From a virus, in IMG/VR virus record IMGVR_UViG_3300028840_005126, positions 1 to 22,443 of that record: DNA of 22,443 bases. The stretch is one strand, 5' to 3'. Position numbers and translations under genes: made by a program. The notes beneath the pieces are model-generated. The model saw nothing but the letters and a program-made list of their open reading frames with translations, was not told where the DNA came from and searched no databases. Shown here in pieces: positions 1,025 through 22,443 of this stretch; within the stretch, counting starts at the first letter, position 1; each line of letters opens with the position of its first letter.

Positions 1025-1555
1025 ATGTCAGTACATAGATTGAAAGACGGCAGGTGGTTTACCCAATATAGAAATCAAAATGGTAGTATGGAAAGAAAAT
1101 ATTTCGGTCGTGGATTAGAAGCTGAAAAATTTGCTTTTTTAGATGATAAATCTAATCATATTTTAAATTCAGAAGAAAAAAATTCAAAAAGTGAAAAGCA
1201 AGCGGTGGAAAGATTAATTAATAAATTAAAAGAGTATTACCAGGAGAGCGAACTGGAACTTGAATTCAAGTTTGAATCGGGGGTTATTGATATTTTGACT
1301 CCAGATGAAATTATAGAGGTTAAAAACGTGGGCGGTTGGAAAGGTGGAATTGGACAATTGTTAGTATATGCTGAATATTTTCCTGGAAAAAATCTTCGAT
1401 TACACTTGTTTGGAGGAACAACGGGAACAACAATAAAAAAGATTATTCCTGTTTGTCAAAAAAACAAAATTGAAATTACCCATGAACATAGCAAAAATAA
1501 AATTCCGAATATTATCCGTCAACGGATTAGAAGGCGGTTTTTGAATAATATTTAA
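1025..1555 (+). CDS. Putative AP2-like DNA-binding plus PD-(D/E)XK nuclease, possible homing-type endonuclease
   Basis: A 176-residue protein with two visible parts. Residues 1-38 (MSVHRLKDGRWFTQYRN, then RKYFG and EAEKFA) resemble the AP2-like or arm-binding beta-sheet domain found at the N-terminus of many phage integrases and some homing nucleases. Residues 84-125 carry a PD-(D/E)XK-like core: an acidic residue at 84, D89 in GVIDIL, E98-V-K100 in IIEVK, then a helix with Q111 and Y115. No recombinase catalytic residues follow, so it is not an integrase. The gene is strongly AT-rich compared with the terminase and portal, has its own good ribosome site (aaggag), and breaks a conserved head-gene order. 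That is typical of a recently acquired moron or free-standing homing endonuclease. Function is inferred; the nuclease call is moderate. Confidence 0.55.
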   Translation: MSVHRLKDGRWFTQYRNQNGSMERKYFGRGLEAEKFAFLDDKSNHILNSEEKNSKSEKQAVERLINKLKEYYQESELELEFKFESGVIDILTPDEIIEVKNVGGWKGGIGQLLVYAEYFPGKNLRLHLFGGTTGTTIKKIIPVCQKNKIEITHEHSKNKIPNIIRQRIRRRFLNNI

Positions 1556-1611
1556 AAAAATTCGATGGGAAATTGATGCCAAATTAAGATTTTTAACTGG
1601 AGGATAAGATT

Positions 1612-2250
1612 ATGAGTTATACAACACCACTGAGCCCTACAGAGAAAAAGACCATTATGCTTAGAGATATAGAAAAAAAGGATTTTGGCGAAATAGCGGA
1701 ATTGGTGGGCAGGAGCCGGGGCTACATTAGAGAAATTTATAATAGAGCTAAAGACAAGGTTCAATATCATGAGCAAGGTGCAGCTGAATATTGGTTTTAT
1801 GGTTTATCAGCCAGAGCGAGACGTTGTCTTCTCAATTTCGGTTTAAAAAGTAAAGAGGAAGTTGTTGAGGCATTAAATAAAGGCAGATTGAATCCAGGTC
1901 CTAAAGAGAGAGGTTCACGGTTAGGTAATTATGGGTTCAAGACTCATACTGAGGTTTGCGAATGGGCCGGAGTTGTCCCGCATAATTTCGAAGGTAAGAG
2001 GGTTTTTGATAAAGAATTATATACAAAAAGATTCTGGGACCGTTTGAGGGGGTGTAAGTATTGTAATTTTCTTCCTGAGGTGGAAAAAAAAACATCAATA
2101 CGCATTTATGAGAATGGTTTTATAGAACAAGATAATCATTCTTTTTATAGATTAATTTGTCCAGAATGCCCTGAAAAATCTCATTTTGCTACCGAGTGGG
2201 CAGGTTTAAAATATGCCAAAGAGCAGTGGAATAATTTCCATGTCAAGTAA
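1612..2250 (+). CDS. Sigma-region-4-like HTH, RNAP alpha-CTD-like and Lar-like zinc ribbon fusion protein
   Basis: A 212-residue protein with three recognisable pieces. Residues 8-50 (LSPTEKKTIMLRDIE, EIAELVGRSRGYI) match the spacing of a sigma-70 region 4 or LuxR-type HTH. Residues 61-119 (LSARARRCLLNFGLKSKEEV, later NYGFKTHTEV) resemble the RNA polymerase alpha C-terminal domain, whose core reads L-x-x-R-x-x-x-C-L and ends in a G-x-K-S-x-x-E hairpin. Residues 148-208 have C148-x2-C151 and C183-x2-C186 with a final EQWNN, the layout of Lar-type restriction-alleviation zinc ribbons. Known parts bind DNA or modulate transcription or restriction; the combined role is unknown. The gene is AT-rich like its upstream neighbour and has a good site, ggagg, before the ATG. 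It ends 5 bases before an 11-bp-phased repeat array that could be its target. Confidence 0.55.
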   Translation: MSYTTPLSPTEKKTIMLRDIEKKDFGEIAELVGRSRGYIREIYNRAKDKVQYHEQGAAEYWFYGLSARARRCLLNFGLKSKEEVVEALNKGRLNPGPKERGSRLGNYGFKTHTEVCEWAGVVPHNFEGKRVFDKELYTKRFWDRLRGCKYCNFLPEVEKKTSIRIYENGFIEQDNHSFYRLICPECPEKSHFATEWAGLKYAKEQWNNFHVK

Positions 2251-2548: not shown

Positions 2549-2773
2549 ATGGCATTTACCGCAACCGATCTTGCCAACGTCGAAGCGGCCATGGTGGAGC
2601 TGGCCACCGGATCCCGGGTGGTGGAAGTTGAGATCGCCGGCAAGACCATCCGCTACCAGCCGGCCCAGCTGCAGCAGATTCAGCGCCTGCGCGATTTGAT
2701 CCAGGCCGATGTCAACAACTCATCCGACAGCTCGGGCTTTTTGCAGTCCGTGTCGTTTAAGGATCCCACCTGA
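2549..2773 (+). CDS. Head-tail joining protein, gpW family
   Basis: A 74-residue protein matching lambda gpW in length and pattern: an N-terminal helix (ATDLANVEAAMVELATG), a beta-hairpin (SRVVEVEIAGKTIRYQPA) and a C-terminal helix (QLQQIQRLRDLIQADV). gpW binds below the portal as part of the neck that lets tails attach. The stop shares its last base with the portal start (TGATG), so translation is probably coupled. It sits directly before the portal, exactly as in lambda. Confidence 0.85.
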   Translation: MAFTATDLANVEAAMVELATGSRVVEVEIAGKTIRYQPAQLQQIQRLRDLIQADVNNSSDSSGFLQSVSFKDPT

Positions 2774-4296
2774 TGCCGCCAGCCATTTTCCAAGACGACC
2801 CGAAAACCACCCGCCTGGAGCGGGCCATCAACTACATATCGCCCACCTGGGCGCTGCAGCGCAATCTGCGCCGGCAGATGCTGGCCTACGCCACAGACTA
2901 CAAGGCCGCCGACATAACGACTTTGCGGGCCGACTGGATCAGCGAATCCGCGGGCGGCGGCCAGACACCGGCCGGAAACGAGCTTGCCATCCTGCGGGCC
3001 CGGTCCCGGGACGCCACCCGCAACCACCCGGTGGCGGCCGGGGCGATCGACACCCTGGCGCACAACATCATCGGCAGCGGGCTAAAGCCCCAGAGCCGGA
3101 TCCCCCACAAGCTGCTGGGCATCACCGAGGAGCGCGCCGCTGACCTGCAGATCCAGGCCGAGGCCGCTTTCGAGCGCTTCAAGCCGTTTGCCTCATCCGA
3201 TGACCGGCTGGATTTTGACGATTTGCAGTTTCTGGCACTTTTAAAAACCGTGGAGGACGGCGAGATCATCGCGCTGCCGACCTGGGCCAAAGACGACTGG
3301 CGGCCTTTCGGGCGCTGTGTCGAGCTTCTTGAGTCCGAGCGCCTGGCGACCCCGATCGGAAAAGGGCTTGAATCTAAAATACGGCACGGGATAAAAGCCG
3401 GCGGCCGCGGCCAGCCGCAAACCTATTTTATCCGCAAGGCCGATTCCACCACCGATTATCTGGAAATCCCCGCCCGGGACAAAAACGGGCGTCCCAAAAT
3501 ACTGCACATATTCGCATCGCGCCGCCCGGGACAGATGCGCGGGGTGCCCTATTTCGCCCCGGTGCTGACCTATTTTCAGGACCTGGCAAGCTACCTGGAG
3601 GCCGAGATCGTGGCGGCCCGGGTGGCGGCCTGCCTGTCGGTTTTCATATCAAAAGAGCAGGCCTTCGGGCCCACCGGCAAGGAGTCGGACACGGGCTTTC
3701 AGGAGCTGACCCCGGGGCTGATCGCACGGCTGGGGATCGGCGAGTCTATCAACGTGGTGGACCCGAAGCGGCCGGGCGATTCCTTTGCGCCCTTTGTCGA
3801 GTCGGTGCTGCGCCTGATCGGTGTGGCCCTGGGCCTTCCCTACGAGCTTCTGGTCAAAGATTTTTCCAAAACAAATTATTCCAGCGCGCGCGCGGCCCTG
3901 CTGGAGGGCCGGCGGGTGTTTAAAACCTGGCGCGGGTGGATGGCAAAGCGGTTTTGCCAGCCGATCTGGCAGCTGGTGATCGAAGAGGCCTATCTGCGCG
4001 GCGAGTTCGACGCGCCCGACTTTTACGACCACTATTTCGAATACACCCGGGCGGCCTGGATCGGCGGCGGCTGGGGCTGGGTGGACCCGGTCAAAGAGGT
4101 GGAGGCCAGCCGCAAGGCGATCGACTACGGCCTGTCGACCCTGGCCAAAGAGGTCGCCGCCCAGGGCGACGACTGGGAAGAAAATCTGGACCAGCTGGCC
4201 CGCGAGCGTGACGCCATCGACAAAAAGAAAATCACGATTTATCACAGCGGCAAAGACACGGAGGTCAAAGAAGATGCCCAACCCCAAAAAGAATGA
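2773..4296 (+). CDS. Portal protein, lambda gpB family
   Basis: A 507-residue protein of the usual length for lambda-family portals, the dodecameric ring through which DNA enters and leaves the head. Family-like landmarks are the N-terminal RATRNHPVAAGAIDTLAHNI block (about residues 79-98), where flanking residues are basic. Further on are the ADWISES region, the FASRRPGQMRGVPYFAPV clip/stem block (about 247-264), and the LGLPYELLVKDFSKTNYSSA block (about 354-373), which is a hallmark of this family. The C-terminus is acidic and lysine-rich. It overlaps the next gene by 23 bases. Confidence 0.93.
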   Translation: MPPAIFQDDPKTTRLERAINYISPTWALQRNLRRQMLAYATDYKAADITTLRADWISESAGGGQTPAGNELAILRARSRDATRNHPVAAGAIDTLAHNIIGSGLKPQSRIPHKLLGITEERAADLQIQAEAAFERFKPFASSDDRLDFDDLQFLALLKTVEDGEIIALPTWAKDDWRPFGRCVELLESERLATPIGKGLESKIRHGIKAGGRGQPQTYFIRKADSTTDYLEIPARDKNGRPKILHIFASRRPGQMRGVPYFAPVLTYFQDLASYLEAEIVAARVAACLSVFISKEQAFGPTGKESDTGFQELTPGLIARLGIGESINVVDPKRPGDSFAPFVESVLRLIGVALGLPYELLVKDFSKTNYSSARAALLEGRRVFKTWRGWMAKRFCQPIWQLVIEEAYLRGEFDAPDFYDHYFEYTRAAWIGGGWGWVDPVKEVEASRKAIDYGLSTLAKEVAAQGDDWEENLDQLARERDAIDKKKITIYHSGKDTEVKEDAQPQKE

Positions 4297-5416: not shown

Positions 5417-5908
5417 ATGACAATACATTATGACGGATTGGATGTCACCTTTGTCGCTGCCGAGGACCTATCCAGCTACCAGTACCGGTTCGTGCACCAG
5501 GCCAGCGACACCACGGTGGACCTGATGGACGGGGCCACCGAGTACCCGGTCGGCATTTTGCAGAACGCGCCGGAATCAGGTGAGACGGCAGTGGTCCGCA
5601 TCAAAGGGACATCCAAATTGGTAATGAACGGGGCCATGGCGGTCGGCACCCGGATCAAGGCAGAATACGTCGGGGCGGCCGACAACGGCAAGGGAGACGT
5701 GGCCGACACGGATTACGACAACATCCGCGGCATGTGCATCAAGGCGACCGGAGCCGAGGACGATGTCGGCGCGGTTTTGCTGGTGGTCAACACGGTTGCG
5801 ATCGGGCCGAGCGAATCCCCGAGCGAAAGCCCGAGCGAATCCCCGTCATTGAGCCCGAGCGCATCTGAATCGCCGAGCGAATCACCGTCTGCAAGCCCCA
5901 GCGAATAG
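5417..5908 (+). CDS. Capsid decoration/cement-like protein with SPSE-repeat tail
   Basis: A 163-residue protein. Residues 1-130 are a beta-rich domain resembling DUF2190-type capsid cement proteins (FVAAEDLSSYQYRFVHQ, then YPVGILQNAPESGETAVVR and EDDVGAVLL), and it sits in the lambda D position between scaffold and major capsid. Residues 131-163 are a Pro/Ser/Glu repeat (SPSESPSES and SPSASES units) absent from the paralogue next door. By position and fold it should bind the outside of the shell, so the repeat would project as a flexible fibre. The ribosome site is strong (aaaggag). About four in five residues of the domain match the next gene, so this is a tandem duplication. The decoration role is inferred. 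Confidence 0.7.
   Translation: MTIHYDGLDVTFVAAEDLSSYQYRFVHQASDTTVDLMDGATEYPVGILQNAPESGETAVVRIKGTSKLVMNGAMAVGTRIKAEYVGAADNGKGDVADTDYDNIRGMCIKATGAEDDVGAVLLVVNTVAIGPSESPSESPSESPSLSPSASESPSESPSASPSE
5807..5905 (+). repeat. SPSE repeat, copy in the first decoration gene
   Basis: About 33 codons of Ser-Pro-Ser-Glu type repeat at the 3' end of the decoration gene. Serine codons are mixed (agc, tcc, tcg, tca, tct), so the DNA is diverged while the protein repeat is kept. It has the same motif as 14507-15137 and 22207-22443. Confidence 0.9.
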
Positions 5909-5966: not shown

Positions 5967-6359
5967 ATGGCAATCGAATATGGAGGATTAGATATATCTT
6001 TTGTCGCCGCGGAAGATCTCAGCTCTCAACAATACCGGTTCGTGCACCAGGCCACCGACACCACCGTGGATCTGATGGACGGGGCCACCGAGTACCCGAT
6101 CGGCATTTTGCAGAACGCGCCGGAATCCGGGGAGGTGGCAGTGGTCAGGGTTGAAGGGACTTCCAAGCTGGTGATGAATGATGCGGTGGCTGTCGGCACA
6201 AAGCTAAAGGCGGAATATGTCGGCGCAACAGACAACGGAAAAGGCGACGCCGCCGACACGGATTACGATCTGGTCCGGGGCATTTGCATCAAGGCCTCCG
6301 GGGCGGAGGACGATGTCGGCGCCGTTCTGCTGTGCAGCGACACCCTGATGGTAGCATAG
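5967..6359 (+). CDS. Capsid decoration/cement-like protein, paralogue without repeat tail
   Basis: A 130-residue protein nearly colinear with the previous gene: both share FVAAEDLSS, QYRFVHQA, DTTVDLMDGATEYP and KAEYVGA. It stops at the end of the beta domain, with no SPSE tail, so it is likely the ancestral form. Both genes have their own ribosome site (here acaaggag), which allows independent levels. Together they could decorate the shell in a mix of plain and tailed subunits. As for the first copy, the role is inferred from position and resemblance to cement proteins. Confidence 0.7.
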   Translation: MAIEYGGLDISFVAAEDLSSQQYRFVHQATDTTVDLMDGATEYPIGILQNAPESGEVAVVRVEGTSKLVMNDAVAVGTKLKAEYVGATDNGKGDAADTDYDLVRGICIKASGAEDDVGAVLLCSDTLMVA

Positions 6360-14074: not shown

Positions 14075-15760
14075 ATGGCATTTACGGAAGACCTAACCAG
14101 CGGCCAGACTTTTTCGGCTGACTCTTATCATACGGGGGAGCCGCCCTCAAAGGCGTTTGACGACACTTTGACTTCGGCGTGGTTTATCCAGACCCCGAGT
14201 TTTCCGCACTGGATACAAGTGCAATTTGCCACAGCGCCTGCCATAATCAAGCTGCGCATGTACCAAAACGAATGGAACCAGGCGCCAGAAGATTTTGTTT
14301 TGTACGGCAGCAACACCGGCTCTTTTTCAGGCGAAGAAACAACACTGCTGACAGTCAATAACATCAACTGGGGAGGGGCGGCAGGCTGGCAGGAATGGGA
14401 ATTTGAAAACACCAACACTTATACTTATTATCGGATTGTAATTACAGACAACAACGAATCGCTCTGGCTTCGGGTAAATGAAATCGAGATGATGGCCGAG
14501 GCAGTTCCGTCTCCGTCTGAGTCGCCCAGCGAGTCGCCGAGCCAGTCGCCGTCCGAGTCACCGTCCGAATCGCCCAGCCTATCGCCATCGGCCAGTGAGA
14601 GCCCGTCGGAAAGCCCCTCGCTGTCGCCTTCGGCGAGTGAATCACCGAGCGAATCACCCAGCGCATCGCCGAGCGCGTCTGAGTCTCCGTCAGAATCGCC
14701 CAGCTTGAGTCCATCCGCCTCCGAATCGCCGTCTGAATCGCCGAGCCAGTCGCCGTCCGAGTCACCGTCTGAGTCGCCCAGCCTGTCGCCGAGCGCATCC
14801 GAATCGCCCAGCGAGTCGCCGAGCCAGTCGCCGAGCGAATCGCCGTCCGAATCGCCGAGCCTGTCGCCGAGCGCATCCGAATCGCCCAGCGAAAGCCCGT
14901 CTGTATCTCCCAGCGAGTCACCGAGCCAGTCGCCGTCCGAATCGCCGTCTGAGTCGCCCAGCCTGTCGCCGAGCGCGTCAGAATCGCCGAGCGAGTCACC
15001 GAGCCAGTCGCCGAGCGAATCCCCATCGGAATCGCCGAGCCTGTCGCCGAGCGCATCCGAATCTCCCAGCGAATCGCCGAGTCTGTCGCCGAGTGCATCC
15101 GAATCTCCCAGCGAGTCGCCGTCGCCCAGCCCGTCGATCGCAGAGACCGACACCGGCGAGGAGATCGGCATCGGGGTCGAGTTTGCGGCCTTTAACTGGA
15201 GCAAGTGGCTTGCCGCCAACAAAGAGCGCGCCATCGAGCGTTATTACTTCACCCTGACCGGGGACGCGGACAGCACAACAGACATTGAAATCCCGATCTC
15301 ATCGTTTCAGGCCAGAAAACGCACGGGGGAATCAACCTACCTTTCGGTGGTGATCCCGGATTTTGCGGGCCAGGCCCAGGCGGTGTCCGACCGCTCAAAC
15401 GGGGAGATGGTCATCGAAATGGCTTACACAATAGATGGGCAGGAGTCGATCCGCGAAGAAATCCTGCGCGCGGACTTAGAAGACATCCGCACCGACGAAG
15501 GCCCGGTCAACCGATCAATTATCTTGACGGGGCATAAAACCCAGACCTTCGGCTCAAAGATAGTTGAGCTTGAAAACCCGACTTATAAAAACGTTAGTGG
15601 AGGACGGATACTGTATCGGTTCGCCCGGCTGGATCTGTACCTGAACCCGGGCGACACCTGTCGGGTGGAAGATGATGAGTTTGTGATCGATTATATCACC
15701 TACATGGTCAGCGTGGGAAGCGATCATGTGTTCAAAACCATGGAATTAAGAGAGATCTAA
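14075..15760 (+). CDS. Tail protein: discoidin-like domain, long SPSE repeat, tail-specific C-terminus
   Basis: A 561-residue three-part protein. Residues 1-143 resemble an F5/8 type C (discoidin) carbohydrate-binding domain: KAFDDTLTSAWF, FPHWIQVQF, EDFVLYGSNTGSFSG, YTYYRIVITDNNE and RVNEIEMM. Residues 145-354 are almost pure SPSESPSQ, SPSLSPS and ASES units. Residues 355-561 form a beta-rich domain (IGVEFAAFNWSKWL, IEIPISSFQARKRTG, YMVSVGSDHVFKTMEL) that probably anchors to the tail. A sugar-binding head on a flexible stalk would suit receptor contact. It shares its last base with the next start. The discoidin call rests on pattern; the anchor role is inferred. Confidence 0.65.
   Translation: MAFTEDLTSGQTFSADSYHTGEPPSKAFDDTLTSAWFIQTPSFPHWIQVQFATAPAIIKLRMYQNEWNQAPEDFVLYGSNTGSFSGEETTLLTVNNINWGGAAGWQEWEFENTNTYTYYRIVITDNNESLWLRVNEIEMMAEAVPSPSESPSESPSQSPSESPSESPSLSPSASESPSESPSLSPSASESPSESPSASPSASESPSESPSLSPSASESPSESPSQSPSESPSESPSLSPSASESPSESPSQSPSESPSESPSLSPSASESPSESPSVSPSESPSQSPSESPSESPSLSPSASESPSESPSQSPSESPSESPSLSPSASESPSESPSLSPSASESPSESPSPSPSIAETDTGEEIGIGVEFAAFNWSKWLAANKERAIERYYFTLTGDADSTTDIEIPISSFQARKRTGESTYLSVVIPDFAGQAQAVSDRSNGEMVIEMAYTIDGQESIREEILRADLEDIRTDEGPVNRSIILTGHKTQTFGSKIVELENPTYKNVSGGRILYRFARLDLYLNPGDTCRVEDDEFVIDYITYMVSVGSDHVFKTMELREI
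14507..15137 (+). repeat. SPSE repeat, long copy in the tail protein gene
   Basis: About 210 codons of Ser-Pro-Ser-X repeat, where X is mostly Glu with Gln, Leu, Ala or Val at set intervals. The higher-order unit is roughly SPSESPSLSPSASES. Longer DNA copies recur (for example around 14783-14812 and 14860-14889), showing recent internal duplication, while serine codons remain mixed. Confidence 0.93.
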
Positions 15761-19756: not shown

Positions 19757-20209
19757 ATGGCGGAAGAAAGATATGAATACCCATATCATGAATATGATGG
19801 GTTAGGCAGTTGGACTTTGCGAAGACGCATCACAAAAGATGTCGGTGTTACACCTTTGGGGGTGTCTTCCTTCCCCGATCAAAATAAATTAGTAGTCACG
19901 TTTGATGCTGAATTGACGATTGGGCAGAAAACAAACCTTGACACCCTTATGGCAGAAGGCGCGGCGGCTTTTGATCCACCGAACCCGACAGGCGTTAGCA
20001 TCTTTTCGCTTGAAGATATTTATGAAGACTTTGAAAGCGTAAGAACTGCTGCGAACGACCCCGGCGCGGATATATGGTTTCGTGAGTCAACGCCCGGAAG
20101 TGGTAATTATGACAAAATTGAAATTCAGTTTTCTAAATCTCTATCGGTGCAGGAAAGAAAAGCGGTGGAGAATTATTATGCTGCTAACGCTGTTTGGACG
20201 GTGCAATAA
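19757..20209 (+). CDS. Phage appendage-associated protein, unknown
   Basis: A 150-residue acidic protein (start MAEERYEYPYHEYDGLGSW) with helix and strand alternation (LVVTFDAELTIGQKTNLDTL, IFSLEDIYEDFESVRTAAND). It ends on the first base of the next gene (TAATG), so it is translationally coupled to the propeller protein and may serve as its adaptor or chaperone. An 89-base gap before it (19668-19756) has AT-rich sequence but no convincing promoter. There is no recognised family. Confidence 0.55.
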   Translation: MAEERYEYPYHEYDGLGSWTLRRRITKDVGVTPLGVSSFPDQNKLVVTFDAELTIGQKTNLDTLMAEGAAAFDPPNPTGVSIFSLEDIYEDFESVRTAANDPGADIWFRESTPGSGNYDKIEIQFSKSLSVQERKAVENYYAANAVWTVQ

Positions 20210-22149
20210 TGGCTGTTAAGTTTGTCAAATACATTAATATTTTAGACCGTGAAATTACCAGCAGCAGCGGCAATATTGCTGAAAAAGTTTATCTTGATAC
20301 AACCGATTATGACGGCACGGTGTTATATTATTTTGAGATAGTGGCTAAGATTTCAGTCGGCAGCGGTTCGGTTTATTTTCAAGATTCGTCAAATAACGCA
20401 GACGGCACGATCACGGTTTCAGCAGCAACCTATACTCGTTATCGTTCAGCCGCAATGACAGTTGCAACCGACACCTATCATATAAATATAAATTCAATCT
20501 TGATATCTGTAAAATCTGCCAGAATAGTAATCGTACAGTCAGACGCAAGCGCCATAACCGACACAGAACTGCAAGCGGAGATTGGCGACTATGAAGCAAA
20601 TAAAACTGGCGCTGCCGACGCCACCGATTACCCGCTAACCTATCCGAAGTACTTTTATTATGATTCAAGCAAATTTGACGGTACGTTATCATTTGAGGCA
20701 CACCTGACATGGATGCAGAACAACGATAAAACTACGGCCACGTTCAAGCTGGAAAAAAATGAACTTGGATTAGCATATATCGACGTTGAAGATCATGGTG
20801 GTACTTACGTGGACGTTTGGGGTGACGGCACCTACATTTACTGCGCTTGCTATGGTAGTGGCATACGAAGTTATTCAGTCGATGGTTCTGGTAATTTGGT
20901 CAATAAAGATACTGATTATCAGGGCGGTCTTTATTGGGGCGTTTGGGGGGATGGAACTTATCTATATGTTGCTTGTGGCTTAGACGGTATCCGAAGCTAT
21001 TCCGTGGACGGTTCGGGAAATTTTACTTATATCGACGTTGACGACCAGGGGGATGATTATCGCGAAGTTTGGGGGGACGGTAATTTTATTTATGCGGCTT
21101 GTTATGGTGGCGGCATACGAAGTTATTCAGTCGATGGTTCTGGTAATCTAACTTATATCGACGGAGACGACCAGGGCGGAAGCTATTGGCGAGTTTGGGG
21201 GGATGGCAATTTTATATATGCGTTAGCTTTGACCAGTGGGATACATAGCTATTCCGTAGATGGTTCGGGAAATTTGACTTACATAGATACTGATTATCAG
21301 GGCGGGTCATATATCGGAGCTTGGGGGGATGGAACTTATCTATATGTTGCTTGTGGCTTAGACGGTATCCGAAGCTATTCCGTGGACGGTTCGGGAAATT
21401 TTACTTATATCGACGTTGACGATCAGGGGAATGATTATTACGACGCTTGGAGTGACGGCACCTACATTTACTGCGCTTGTTATGATGATGGCATACGAAG
21501 TTACTTAGCCGATGCTTCTGGCAATCTAACCTATATCGACGTTGAATATCAGGGTGATTATTACTATTCTGTATGGGGTGACGGCACCTACATTTACTGC
21601 GCTTGTGGCTCTGACGGAATACGAAGCTACAATTTAGAAGAGGCATTCAATCTATGGACTGATGTTGCAACTATTTACAGCGGAAGTGGCACGGATGGGG
21701 TTGTTGTTTTCACCCGCTACACAACAGACTTTAGCGCCAACATGATAAGCGGCAGAAATTATAGGCTTGTATGGCAAGCGGCGGATGCAAAGTATGGCGA
21801 TGTAACTATTTACAATGCCAAACTGGTGGTGAAGCAAACGGACGCAAGTGAGATTACAAAAACCCAAACCATCCTAACCCTTTTAAATTCCGAGACAGTT
21901 TCCGACACCGGCCTTCAAGACTGCGATGGCTATTATGATGCCGACGAGTGGGACGGTGTGACGGTAAACATTTACCCGGAGCATGACGCCAGCGGAGCGA
22001 GTAGTAATACAAAATTACAGGAAGATACGGACGATACCGCAAGCGATGTCGCCAACAGCAGTATAACCGGAGCAAACCGCCAGCGCGGGGCAACGGCATT
22101 GAGTATAACCGACAATGAAGACATTGATACTAATATCGTGACGGCTTAA
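20209..22149 (+). CDS. Seven-repeat beta-propeller appendage protein, likely receptor-facing
   Basis: A 646-residue protein, chosen from ATG 20209 because it overlaps the preceding stop (an in-frame ATG at 20194 lies within the previous gene). Residues 1-189 are beta-rich. Residues 190-483 are seven 42-residue repeats with motifs YIDVDDQGG, VWGDGTYIYCACY and GIRSYSVDGSGNLT, which fit a seven-bladed, LVIVD-like propeller. Residues 484-646 are another beta-rich domain. The N- and C-flanks look related (IVIVQSDASAITDTELQ and LVVKQTDASEITKTQ), as if the propeller split or was inserted between two copies of one fold. Repeats 2-3 and 5-6 are nearly identical in DNA. The next gene is an SPSE protein, so this is likely part of the tail fibre set. 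Confidence 0.65.
   Translation: MAVKFVKYINILDREITSSSGNIAEKVYLDTTDYDGTVLYYFEIVAKISVGSGSVYFQDSSNNADGTITVSAATYTRYRSAAMTVATDTYHININSILISVKSARIVIVQSDASAITDTELQAEIGDYEANKTGAADATDYPLTYPKYFYYDSSKFDGTLSFEAHLTWMQNNDKTTATFKLEKNELGLAYIDVEDHGGTYVDVWGDGTYIYCACYGSGIRSYSVDGSGNLVNKDTDYQGGLYWGVWGDGTYLYVACGLDGIRSYSVDGSGNFTYIDVDDQGDDYREVWGDGNFIYAACYGGGIRSYSVDGSGNLTYIDGDDQGGSYWRVWGDGNFIYALALTSGIHSYSVDGSGNLTYIDTDYQGGSYIGAWGDGTYLYVACGLDGIRSYSVDGSGNFTYIDVDDQGNDYYDAWSDGTYIYCACYDDGIRSYLADASGNLTYIDVEYQGDYYYSVWGDGTYIYCACGSDGIRSYNLEEAFNLWTDVATIYSGSGTDGVVVFTRYTTDFSANMISGRNYRLVWQAADAKYGDVTIYNAKLVVKQTDASEITKTQTILTLLNSETVSDTGLQDCDGYYDADEWDGVTVNIYPEHDASGASSNTKLQEDTDDTASDVANSSITGANRQRGATALSITDNEDIDTNIVTA
20776..21657 (+). repeat. 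Seven tandem 126-bp propeller repeats
   Basis: The coding repeats have an exact 126-bp period (starts at 20776, 20902, 21028, and so on). A 102-base block at 20943-21044 recurs unchanged at 21321-21422, offset by 378 bases, or three repeats. Other blocks match at offset 252. This indicates recent duplication or gene conversion of repeat groups. Confidence 0.9.
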
Positions 22150-22152
22150 TCT

Positions 22153-22443
22153 ATGACGATTTATCATCATAAATTAATTTTTGATGTTGAGGCTTCGGAT
22201 GGTTCGTCAGAGTCGCCATCGGAATCGCCGAGCGAATCGCCAAGCCTGTCACCATCGGCCAGCGAAAGCCCGTCGGAGTCGCCATCGGAATCACCATCAG
22301 AGTCGCCGTCAGAATCACCGAGCCTGTCGCCGTCGGCCAGTGAGAGCCCCAGCGAGTCACCGTCTGAGTCACCCAGTGAGTCGCCATCGGAGAGCCCCTC
22401 ACTGTCACCATCGGCGTCAGAATCTCCGAGTGAATCGCCATCC
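22153..22443 (+). CDS. SPSE-repeat protein, 5' part (cut by window end)
   Basis: A frame open from ATG 22153 to the end of the window (97 codons), starting 3 bases after the propeller gene stop. It begins MTIYHHKLIFDVEASDGS and from residue 19 is SPSESPS, SPSLSPS and SPSASES repeat. The short N-terminal strand followed straight by the repeat suggests a stalk with a C-terminal domain beyond the window. There is no good ribosome site; coupling with the previous gene is likely. It is the third gene here with this repeat. Confidence 0.7.
   Translation, partial: MTIYHHKLIFDVEASDGSSESPSESPSESPSLSPSASESPSESPSESPSESPSESPSLSPSASESPSESPSESPSESPSESPSLSPSASESPSESPS
22207..22443 (+). repeat. SPSE repeat, third copy, runs off the window
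   Basis: At least 79 codons of the same Ser-Pro-Ser-Glu repeat, with the same SPSLSPSASESPSE higher-order unit as at 5807 and 14507. Serine codons are mixed (tcg, tca, agc, agt, tct). It continues past the window end. Confidence 0.9.

What the first reader, a model, noticed from the sequence alone, without database searches (positions are those of the whole stretch)
1612..2250. Possible fusion of sigma-4-like HTH, RNAP alpha-CTD-like and Lar-like zinc ribbon in one phage protein
Seen: an HTH-like N-terminus, an LSARARRCL...GFKTHTE block that echoes the alpha-CTD core, and two CxxC pairs with a terminal WNN. Known: alpha-CTD binds UP elements and activators, sigma region 4 contacts the -35, and Lar proteins alleviate restriction. 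Inference: a phage transcription-hijacking or anti-defence protein. I do not recall this domain combination, but I could not search for it.
Basis: partly seen in the sequence, partly recalled or inferred. Interest (0 to 1): 0.75.

Follow-up and report, generated by a model that had tools for sequence, protein, structure and literature searches.

The report
Phage protein joining two promoter-binding domains
A phage carries a small protein that fuses look-alikes of the two bacterial RNA polymerase parts that touch DNA just upstream of promoters (sigma region 4 and the alpha-subunit tail) to a zinc knuckle, most likely as a DNA-binding regulator, a rare domain combination whose function is untested.

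Summary
The ORF at 1612-2250 (+, 212 aa) is real. Residues 7-50 match sigma-70 region 4 above Pfam's cut-off, and the model superposes on sigma-4 structures. Residues about 62-121 resemble the RNA polymerase alpha C-terminal domain (alpha-CTD). Pfam's alpha-CTD model misses this, but profile-profile comparison gives 75-93% probability (none of 150 shuffles came close), a Pfam-positive phage ORF bridges the two, and the isolated-domain model's top structural match is a solved alpha-CTD, though weakly (Z 4.3). The three E. coli residues that touch UP-element DNA (R265, N294, K298) line up with R68, N106 and K110. Residues 146-212 hold two CxxC pairs and WNN: a plausible zinc ribbon, but Lar-family membership was tested and not met. 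A phage homologue (117 aa) consists of the first two domains only, and a plasmid protein shares them; no relative with the zinc part was found. The gene lies in an AT-rich cargo slot (GC 31-38%, flanks about 60%) that holds other genes in related phages. Best reading: an accessory DNA-binding transcription regulator pairing a -35-type HTH with a UP-element-type domain. RNA polymerase hijacking is possible but untested. An interesting new domain combination, not a new kind of system.

The parts
1612..2250 (+). the ORF, 212 aa: sigma-4-like HTH + alpha-CTD-like + zinc-ribbon-like
   Evidence: homologue L005:4202-4552 (tblastn E 1e-15)
1599..1603 (+). GGAGG ribosome-binding site, 8 bases before the ATG
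   Evidence: sequence
1630..1761 (+). sigma-70 region 4-like HTH, residues 7-50
   Evidence: Pfam PF04545 over its cut-off; modelled at pLDDT about 90 and superposes on sigma-4 structures (0.6 A over 47 residues of 8jzt; VIA-align Z 8-10)
1795..1974 (+). alpha-CTD-like (helix-hairpin-helix type) domain, residues 62-121; R68, N106 and K110 at the positions of E. coli R265, N294 and K298
   Evidence: hhalign probability 75-93%, Pfam-positive bridge L007, top VIA-align row an alpha-CTD but Z only 4.3, RNAP alpha chains among PDB sequence hits of a profile that includes the bridge
2047..2247 (+). zinc-ribbon-like C-terminus, residues 146-212: CxxC 148-151, CxxC 183-186, WNN 206-208
   Evidence: sequence; no family match; low-confidence model; absent from the homologue L005
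1010..2368 (.). AT-rich cargo slot (the two cargo ORFs are 31.5% and 37.7% GC; TerL 61%, portal 63%) between the HTH_17 gene and the small CxxC/gpW genes; the same slot holds different AT-rich genes in L044 and L045
1025..1555 (+). neighbouring cargo ORF, 176 aa, probable DNA-binding N-terminus plus PD-(D/E)XK-like nuclease motif (by eye)
   Evidence: NucS_C 0.055 only; no phage relative

Best explanation
The gene is accessory (moron-like) phage cargo encoding a DNA-binding transcription regulator. Its core, shared with a 117-aa protein in a related phage, joins a sigma-region-4-type helix-turn-helix to an RNA polymerase alpha-CTD-type domain by a short linker of about 12 residues. In a holoenzyme these two modules sit side by side on DNA, on the -35 hexamer (major groove) and the proximal UP element (minor groove). 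The fused protein therefore most likely binds a composite site made of a -35-like motif next to an A/T-rich minor-groove tract, and activates or blocks the promoter there. The C-terminal zinc ribbon, found only in this copy, is an add-on for protein or nucleic-acid contact. Shown: ORF, sigma-4 homology, alpha-CTD-type homology, retained UP-contact residues, cargo location. Inferred: zinc binding, composite DNA binding, regulatory direction. Not shown: any contact with RNA polymerase.
For: Sigma70_r4 over the Pfam cut-off, with structure matches to sigma-4 domains including Z 8.2 to the sigma-4 chain of 3n97, the solved alpha-CTD/sigma-4/UP,-35 DNA complex. Alpha-CTD type: hhalign probability 75-93 with 0 of 150 shuffles reaching it; the signal is confined to the alpha-CTD part of RpoA; bridge phage ORF L007:3360-4118 is over the Pfam PF03118 cut-off and aligns to both sides. 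A profile of the four cores, which includes that bridge, searched in 395 whole genomes hits ORFs of RpoA length and essentially nothing else, and RNAP alpha chains make up 8 of its 12 PDB hits. With the bridge left out, RpoA ORFs still crowd the top of a ranking of 6860 ORFs, each at non-significant E. Isolated-domain model: top VIA-align row is H. pylori alpha-CTD, Z 4.3, with E. coli and T. thermophilus alpha-CTD also listed. DNA-contact residues R265/N294/K298 (PMC5101437) line up with R68/N106/K110. GC island and variable slot.
Against: The sequence does not reach Pfam's PF03118 cut-off (13 bits on the isolated fragment against 23.8; 8 bits). Structural Z for the alpha-CTD part is only 4.3, tied with helix-hairpin-helix domains of Rad51, DNA polymerase X and Hel308, so the domain may be a generic HhH rather than a true alpha-CTD. 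The best PDB sequence hit of the four-core profile is a Hel308-type helicase, not RNAP alpha. The sigma-4 recognition helix keeps R36 and R40 but has G and E where SigA has E410 and Q414 (alignment), so the -35 specificity must differ. The alpha-CTD face that touches sigma in E. coli (E261 and neighbours) is not conserved. Only three proteins with the HTH + alpha-CTD core were found.
Confidence: 0.55

Rival explanations
1. RNA polymerase hijacker: the protein competes with or replaces host sigma-4 and alpha-CTD on RNA polymerase or promoters, shutting off host promoters or redirecting polymerase to phage promoters.
For: Both domains are the two upstream DNA-contacting modules of the holoenzyme and retain contact residues; phages are known to target these modules (AsiA/MotA in sigma appropriation, PMC6755090).
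Against: No RNAP contact is shown; the sigma-contacting face of alpha-CTD is not conserved; the gene sits in a cargo slot among packaging and head genes, not in a recognisable early region.
Confidence: 0.2
2. Generic phage DNA-binding accessory protein: HTH plus a helix-hairpin-helix domain used in packaging, recombination or DNA repair, with no link to transcription.
For: HhH domains of Rad51, PolX and Hel308 score about the same structurally and Hel308 tops the PDB sequence list; in L005 the homologue lies next to terminase genes; the bridge L007 fuses the domain to a primase-type C-terminus.
Against: Sequence profiles single out RNAP alpha in six-frame genome searches; the position differs between phages and near relatives lack the gene, so it is not a core packaging part.
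Confidence: 0.17
3. Anti-restriction (Lar-like) protein, the zinc ribbon being the active part.
For: CxxC...CxxC...WNN pattern; hhalign 70% to a RalR/Lar pair.
Against: No PF14354 or NCBIfam match; 2 of 150 cysteine-preserving shuffles score as well; the phage homologue has no zinc part.
Confidence: 0.06

Closest known systems
Sigma-70 region 4 (Pfam PF04545; SigA/RpoD, ECF sigma factors)
   Same: HTH residues 7-50, R..IR recognition-helix pattern, trailing KVQYHE like T. aquaticus SigA KLKYHE
   Different: no sigma region 2 or 3, so not a sigma factor; two of the three SigA -35-contact positions changed
RNA polymerase alpha subunit C-terminal domain (Pfam PF03118)
   Same: pattern, profile homology and aligned DNA-contact residues of the UP-element face
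   Different: below the Pfam cut-off; long insertion (93-105) between helices; no alpha-NTD; sigma-contacting face not conserved
Lar/RalR restriction alleviation family (Pfam PF14354)
   Same: two CxxC knuckles, final helix ending in WN
   Different: no family-level match; longer loop between knuckles; attached to a DNA-binding core
L005:4202-4552 phage protein and Piscinibacter plasmid protein WP_316704619.1 (annotated hypothetical)
   Same: HTH plus alpha-CTD-like core
   Different: no zinc part; the plasmid copy has an extra N-terminus and a shorter inter-helix loop

Membership tests
Sigma-70 region 4 (PF04545) | score over the curated Pfam cut-off | tested here: met
   27.9 bits against 24.1, E 1.6e-6
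Sigma-70 region 4 (PF04545) | sigma-4 HTH fold | tested here: met
   pLDDT about 90; 8jzt 0.6 A over 47 residues, TMt 0.80; VIA-align Z 8-10
Sigma factor | region 2 (-10 binding, core RNAP binding) | tested here: not met
   no such match anywhere in the 212 aa
RNAP alpha-CTD (PF03118) | score over the curated Pfam cut-off | tested here: not met
   13.0 bits on the fragment against 23.8; 8.1 bits
RNAP alpha-CTD (PF03118) | remote homology by profile-profile comparison | tested here: met
   hhalign probability 75-93, 0 of 150 shuffles, signal confined to the CTD
RNAP alpha-CTD (PF03118) | alpha-CTD fold | tested here: inconclusive
   top VIA-align row is an alpha-CTD, but Z is only 4.3 and tied with other HhH domains
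RNAP alpha-CTD (PF03118) | UP-element contact residues R265, N294, K298 | tested here: met
   R68, N106 and K110 align
Lar restriction alleviation (PF14354) | family HMM match | tested here: not met
   no match at E 10, no NCBIfam Lar match
Lar restriction alleviation (PF14354) | alleviates restriction in vivo | not testable with these tools
   -

The most novel reading that the evidence does not exclude
A phage-encoded one-piece mimic of the upstream promoter-recognition face of RNA polymerase holoenzyme (sigma-4 and alpha-CTD fused) that occupies -35/UP DNA, or the RNAP surfaces that normally hold these modules, to seize or silence promoters.
Probability: 0.2. Interest if true: 0.75.

Novelty: new variant of a known kind. 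Interest (0 to 1): 0.5.

Why it matters
Sigma-4 and alpha-CTD normally belong to different subunits and meet only on the promoter. A natural single-chain version would be a compact tool to test how -35 and UP-element recognition combine, and would show a phage regulator built from RNA polymerase's own DNA-binding parts. I found no description of this combination in the searched open-access papers, which is weak evidence of novelty only.

Tried and rejected
Relatives: tblastn in 50,697 phage records found none for the window or L005 protein; plasmids gave one real relative, Piscinibacter, while the Rhizobium and other hits are annotated sigma factors aligning mainly over the HTH. Viral-contig scans with the protein or its pieces found only the L005 contig or nothing. 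395 genomes of the phylum of one terminase-bearing MAG (Desulfohalobiaceae) and 398 of the Aliivibrio phylum gave no HTH+alpha-CTD protein; their single hits are sigma-factor-like proteins matching the HTH only. A genome-contig scan with the core found nothing. A search of the alpha-CTD bridge L007 in phage records found nothing. Foldseek on the isolated domain gave no match with E <= 0.001, only weak HhH-type and other hits. The full-length model says nothing reliable about residues 131-212 (pLDDT below 60). Promoter/terminator scans in the AT-rich region gave consensus hits only and no clean transcription unit. Considered and rejected: a genuine sigma factor (no region 2); a frameshift or two-gene artefact (one open frame, ORF-level homologue); core packaging protein (position varies, near relatives lack it). 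The best PDB sequence hit of the HTH, 8vd6, is a repeat protein whose score is the sum of several weak repeats.

Full report
What is there. The window is a 22,443-base IMG/VR virus record, a fragment, from a tailed phage with a lambda-type packaging/head module: gpA-type terminase large subunit (1-786), HTH_17 protein (797-1009), the AT-rich cargo region, a small two-CxxC protein (2369-2545), gpW connector (2549-2773) and portal (2773-4296). The finding is an intact 212-aa ORF at 1612-2250 with a good ribosome-binding site. Terminase and portal relatives are IMG/VR contigs and a few MAG loci (Deltaproteobacteria, Nitrospirae, Desulfohalobiaceae, Proteobacteria), so the host is probably a related anaerobe (inference).

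HTH. Residues 7-50 match Pfam Sigma70_r4 above its cut-off (27.9 bits). PHROGs and NCBIfam give sub-threshold matches to sigma-factor models. The model of this part has pLDDT about 90 and superposes on sigma-4 domains (8jzt 0.6 A over 47 residues; VIA-align Z 8-10). The alignment to T. aquaticus SigA keeps R36 (R409 in SigA) and R40 (R413) but has G37 and E41 where SigA has E410 and Q414, so DNA binding is plausible but with a different -35 preference (SigA residue numbers and roles are from general knowledge).

Alpha-CTD-like domain. Pfam's PF03118 model does not reach its cut-off. Profile-profile comparison of the three available cores (window, L005, L048) with RpoA C-terminal domains gives hhalign probability 88-93% and score 34-39; with only window and L005 it gives 75-91%. 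In each of the four series the best of 150 column-shuffled templates scores between 16 and 20. Sliding the template along RpoA shows the signal only at the CTD (alpha-NTD windows at most 13; 63 single-sequence decoy windows from other window proteins at most 16). A phage ORF from a related contig (L007:3360-4118) is over the Pfam PF03118 cut-off (29.5 bits) and aligns to both, so it bridges them. A profile of the four cores, the bridge included, run over 395 whole genomes in six frames matches in 14 genomes, in ORFs of RpoA length (one is a 197-aa open frame) and over most of the domain; three of the places were already identified as RpoA. The same profile in the PDB hits RNAP alpha chains in 8 of 12 rows, although its best row is a Hel308-type helicase. 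Without the bridge, RpoA ORFs still dominate the top of a ranking of 6860 ORFs, though each with non-significant E. The isolated domain was modelled at pLDDT 78, pTM 0.69; its highest VIA-align row is the H. pylori alpha-CTD (Z 4.3, 26% identity), with E. coli and T. thermophilus alpha-CTD also listed, but other HhH domains are tied. The fold evidence alone is therefore not decisive; the sequence evidence carries the claim. E. coli R265, N294 and K298, described as possible minor-groove contacts to the UP element (PMC5101437), line up with R68, N106 and K110; C269, G296 and E302 are also kept (C72, G108, E114).

C-terminus. Residues 146-212 carry CxxC, CxxC and WNN. No family in Pfam, NCBIfam or PHROGs matches; PF14354 (Lar) has no match in the window. 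hhalign to RalR plus one Lar-like protein gives 70%, but 2 of 150 shuffles that keep the cysteines do as well. It is best called a zinc-ribbon-like domain; Lar membership is not met. The phage homologue L005 (117 aa) lacks this part.

Context. The two cargo ORFs are 31.5% and 37.7% GC between genes of about 60%. In the close relatives L044 and L045 the same slot, between the HTH_17 gene and the small CxxC/gpW genes, carries different AT-rich ORFs (27-43% GC), including an HNH-like ORF in L045 (by eye). The L005 and L007 genes with alpha-CTD-like domains are also AT-rich (about 38%) and lie beside terminase genes. So the gene behaves as exchangeable cargo. Searches of 395 and 398 genomes of two bacterial phyla found no other full-length relative.

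Mechanism. Sigma-4 on the -35 element and alpha-CTD on the adjacent UP element are neighbours in the holoenzyme (solved together in 3n97, which appears). A single chain joining both by about 12 residues most simply binds a composite -35-like plus A/T-rich site and acts as a regulator. Direct action on RNA polymerase is possible but there is no evidence for it here.

Verdict. It is an unusual combination of known domains; function is inferred.

Noticed in passing
window 1025-1555 +: Neighbouring AT-rich ORF of 176 aa: an integrase-arm/AP2-like start (MSVHRLKDGRWFTQYRNQNG) followed by a PD-(D/E)XK-like motif (GVIDILTPDEIIEVKN...GQLLVYAEYF); no relative in phage records, only a weak NucS_C hint.
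   Followed up: partly
L044:2846-3876 and L045:3286-4982: The same slot (HTH_17 gene to gpW) in close relatives holds different AT-rich genes, in L045 with an HNH-like ORF: a cargo hotspot in the packaging/head module.
   Followed up: partly
L007:3360-4118 (also L006): Phage ORF with a Pfam-positive alpha-CTD domain at its N-terminus and a P4-primase/D5-type C-terminal domain.
   Followed up: partly
window 14075-15760, 5417-5908 and 22153-22443: SPSxSPSE / ESPS repeat tracts in several ORFs of the phage, and shorter ones in relatives (L044/L045).
   Followed up: no
window 5417-5908 and 5967-6359: Two tandem copies of a related small protein before the major capsid-like gene, also duplicated in L044 and L045.
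   Followed up: no
window 20194-22149: Large ORF (651 aa) with about eight repeats of a YIDxDxQGxxYxxxWGDGxxIYxACxxxGIRSYSVDGSG beta-propeller-like unit.
   Followed up: no
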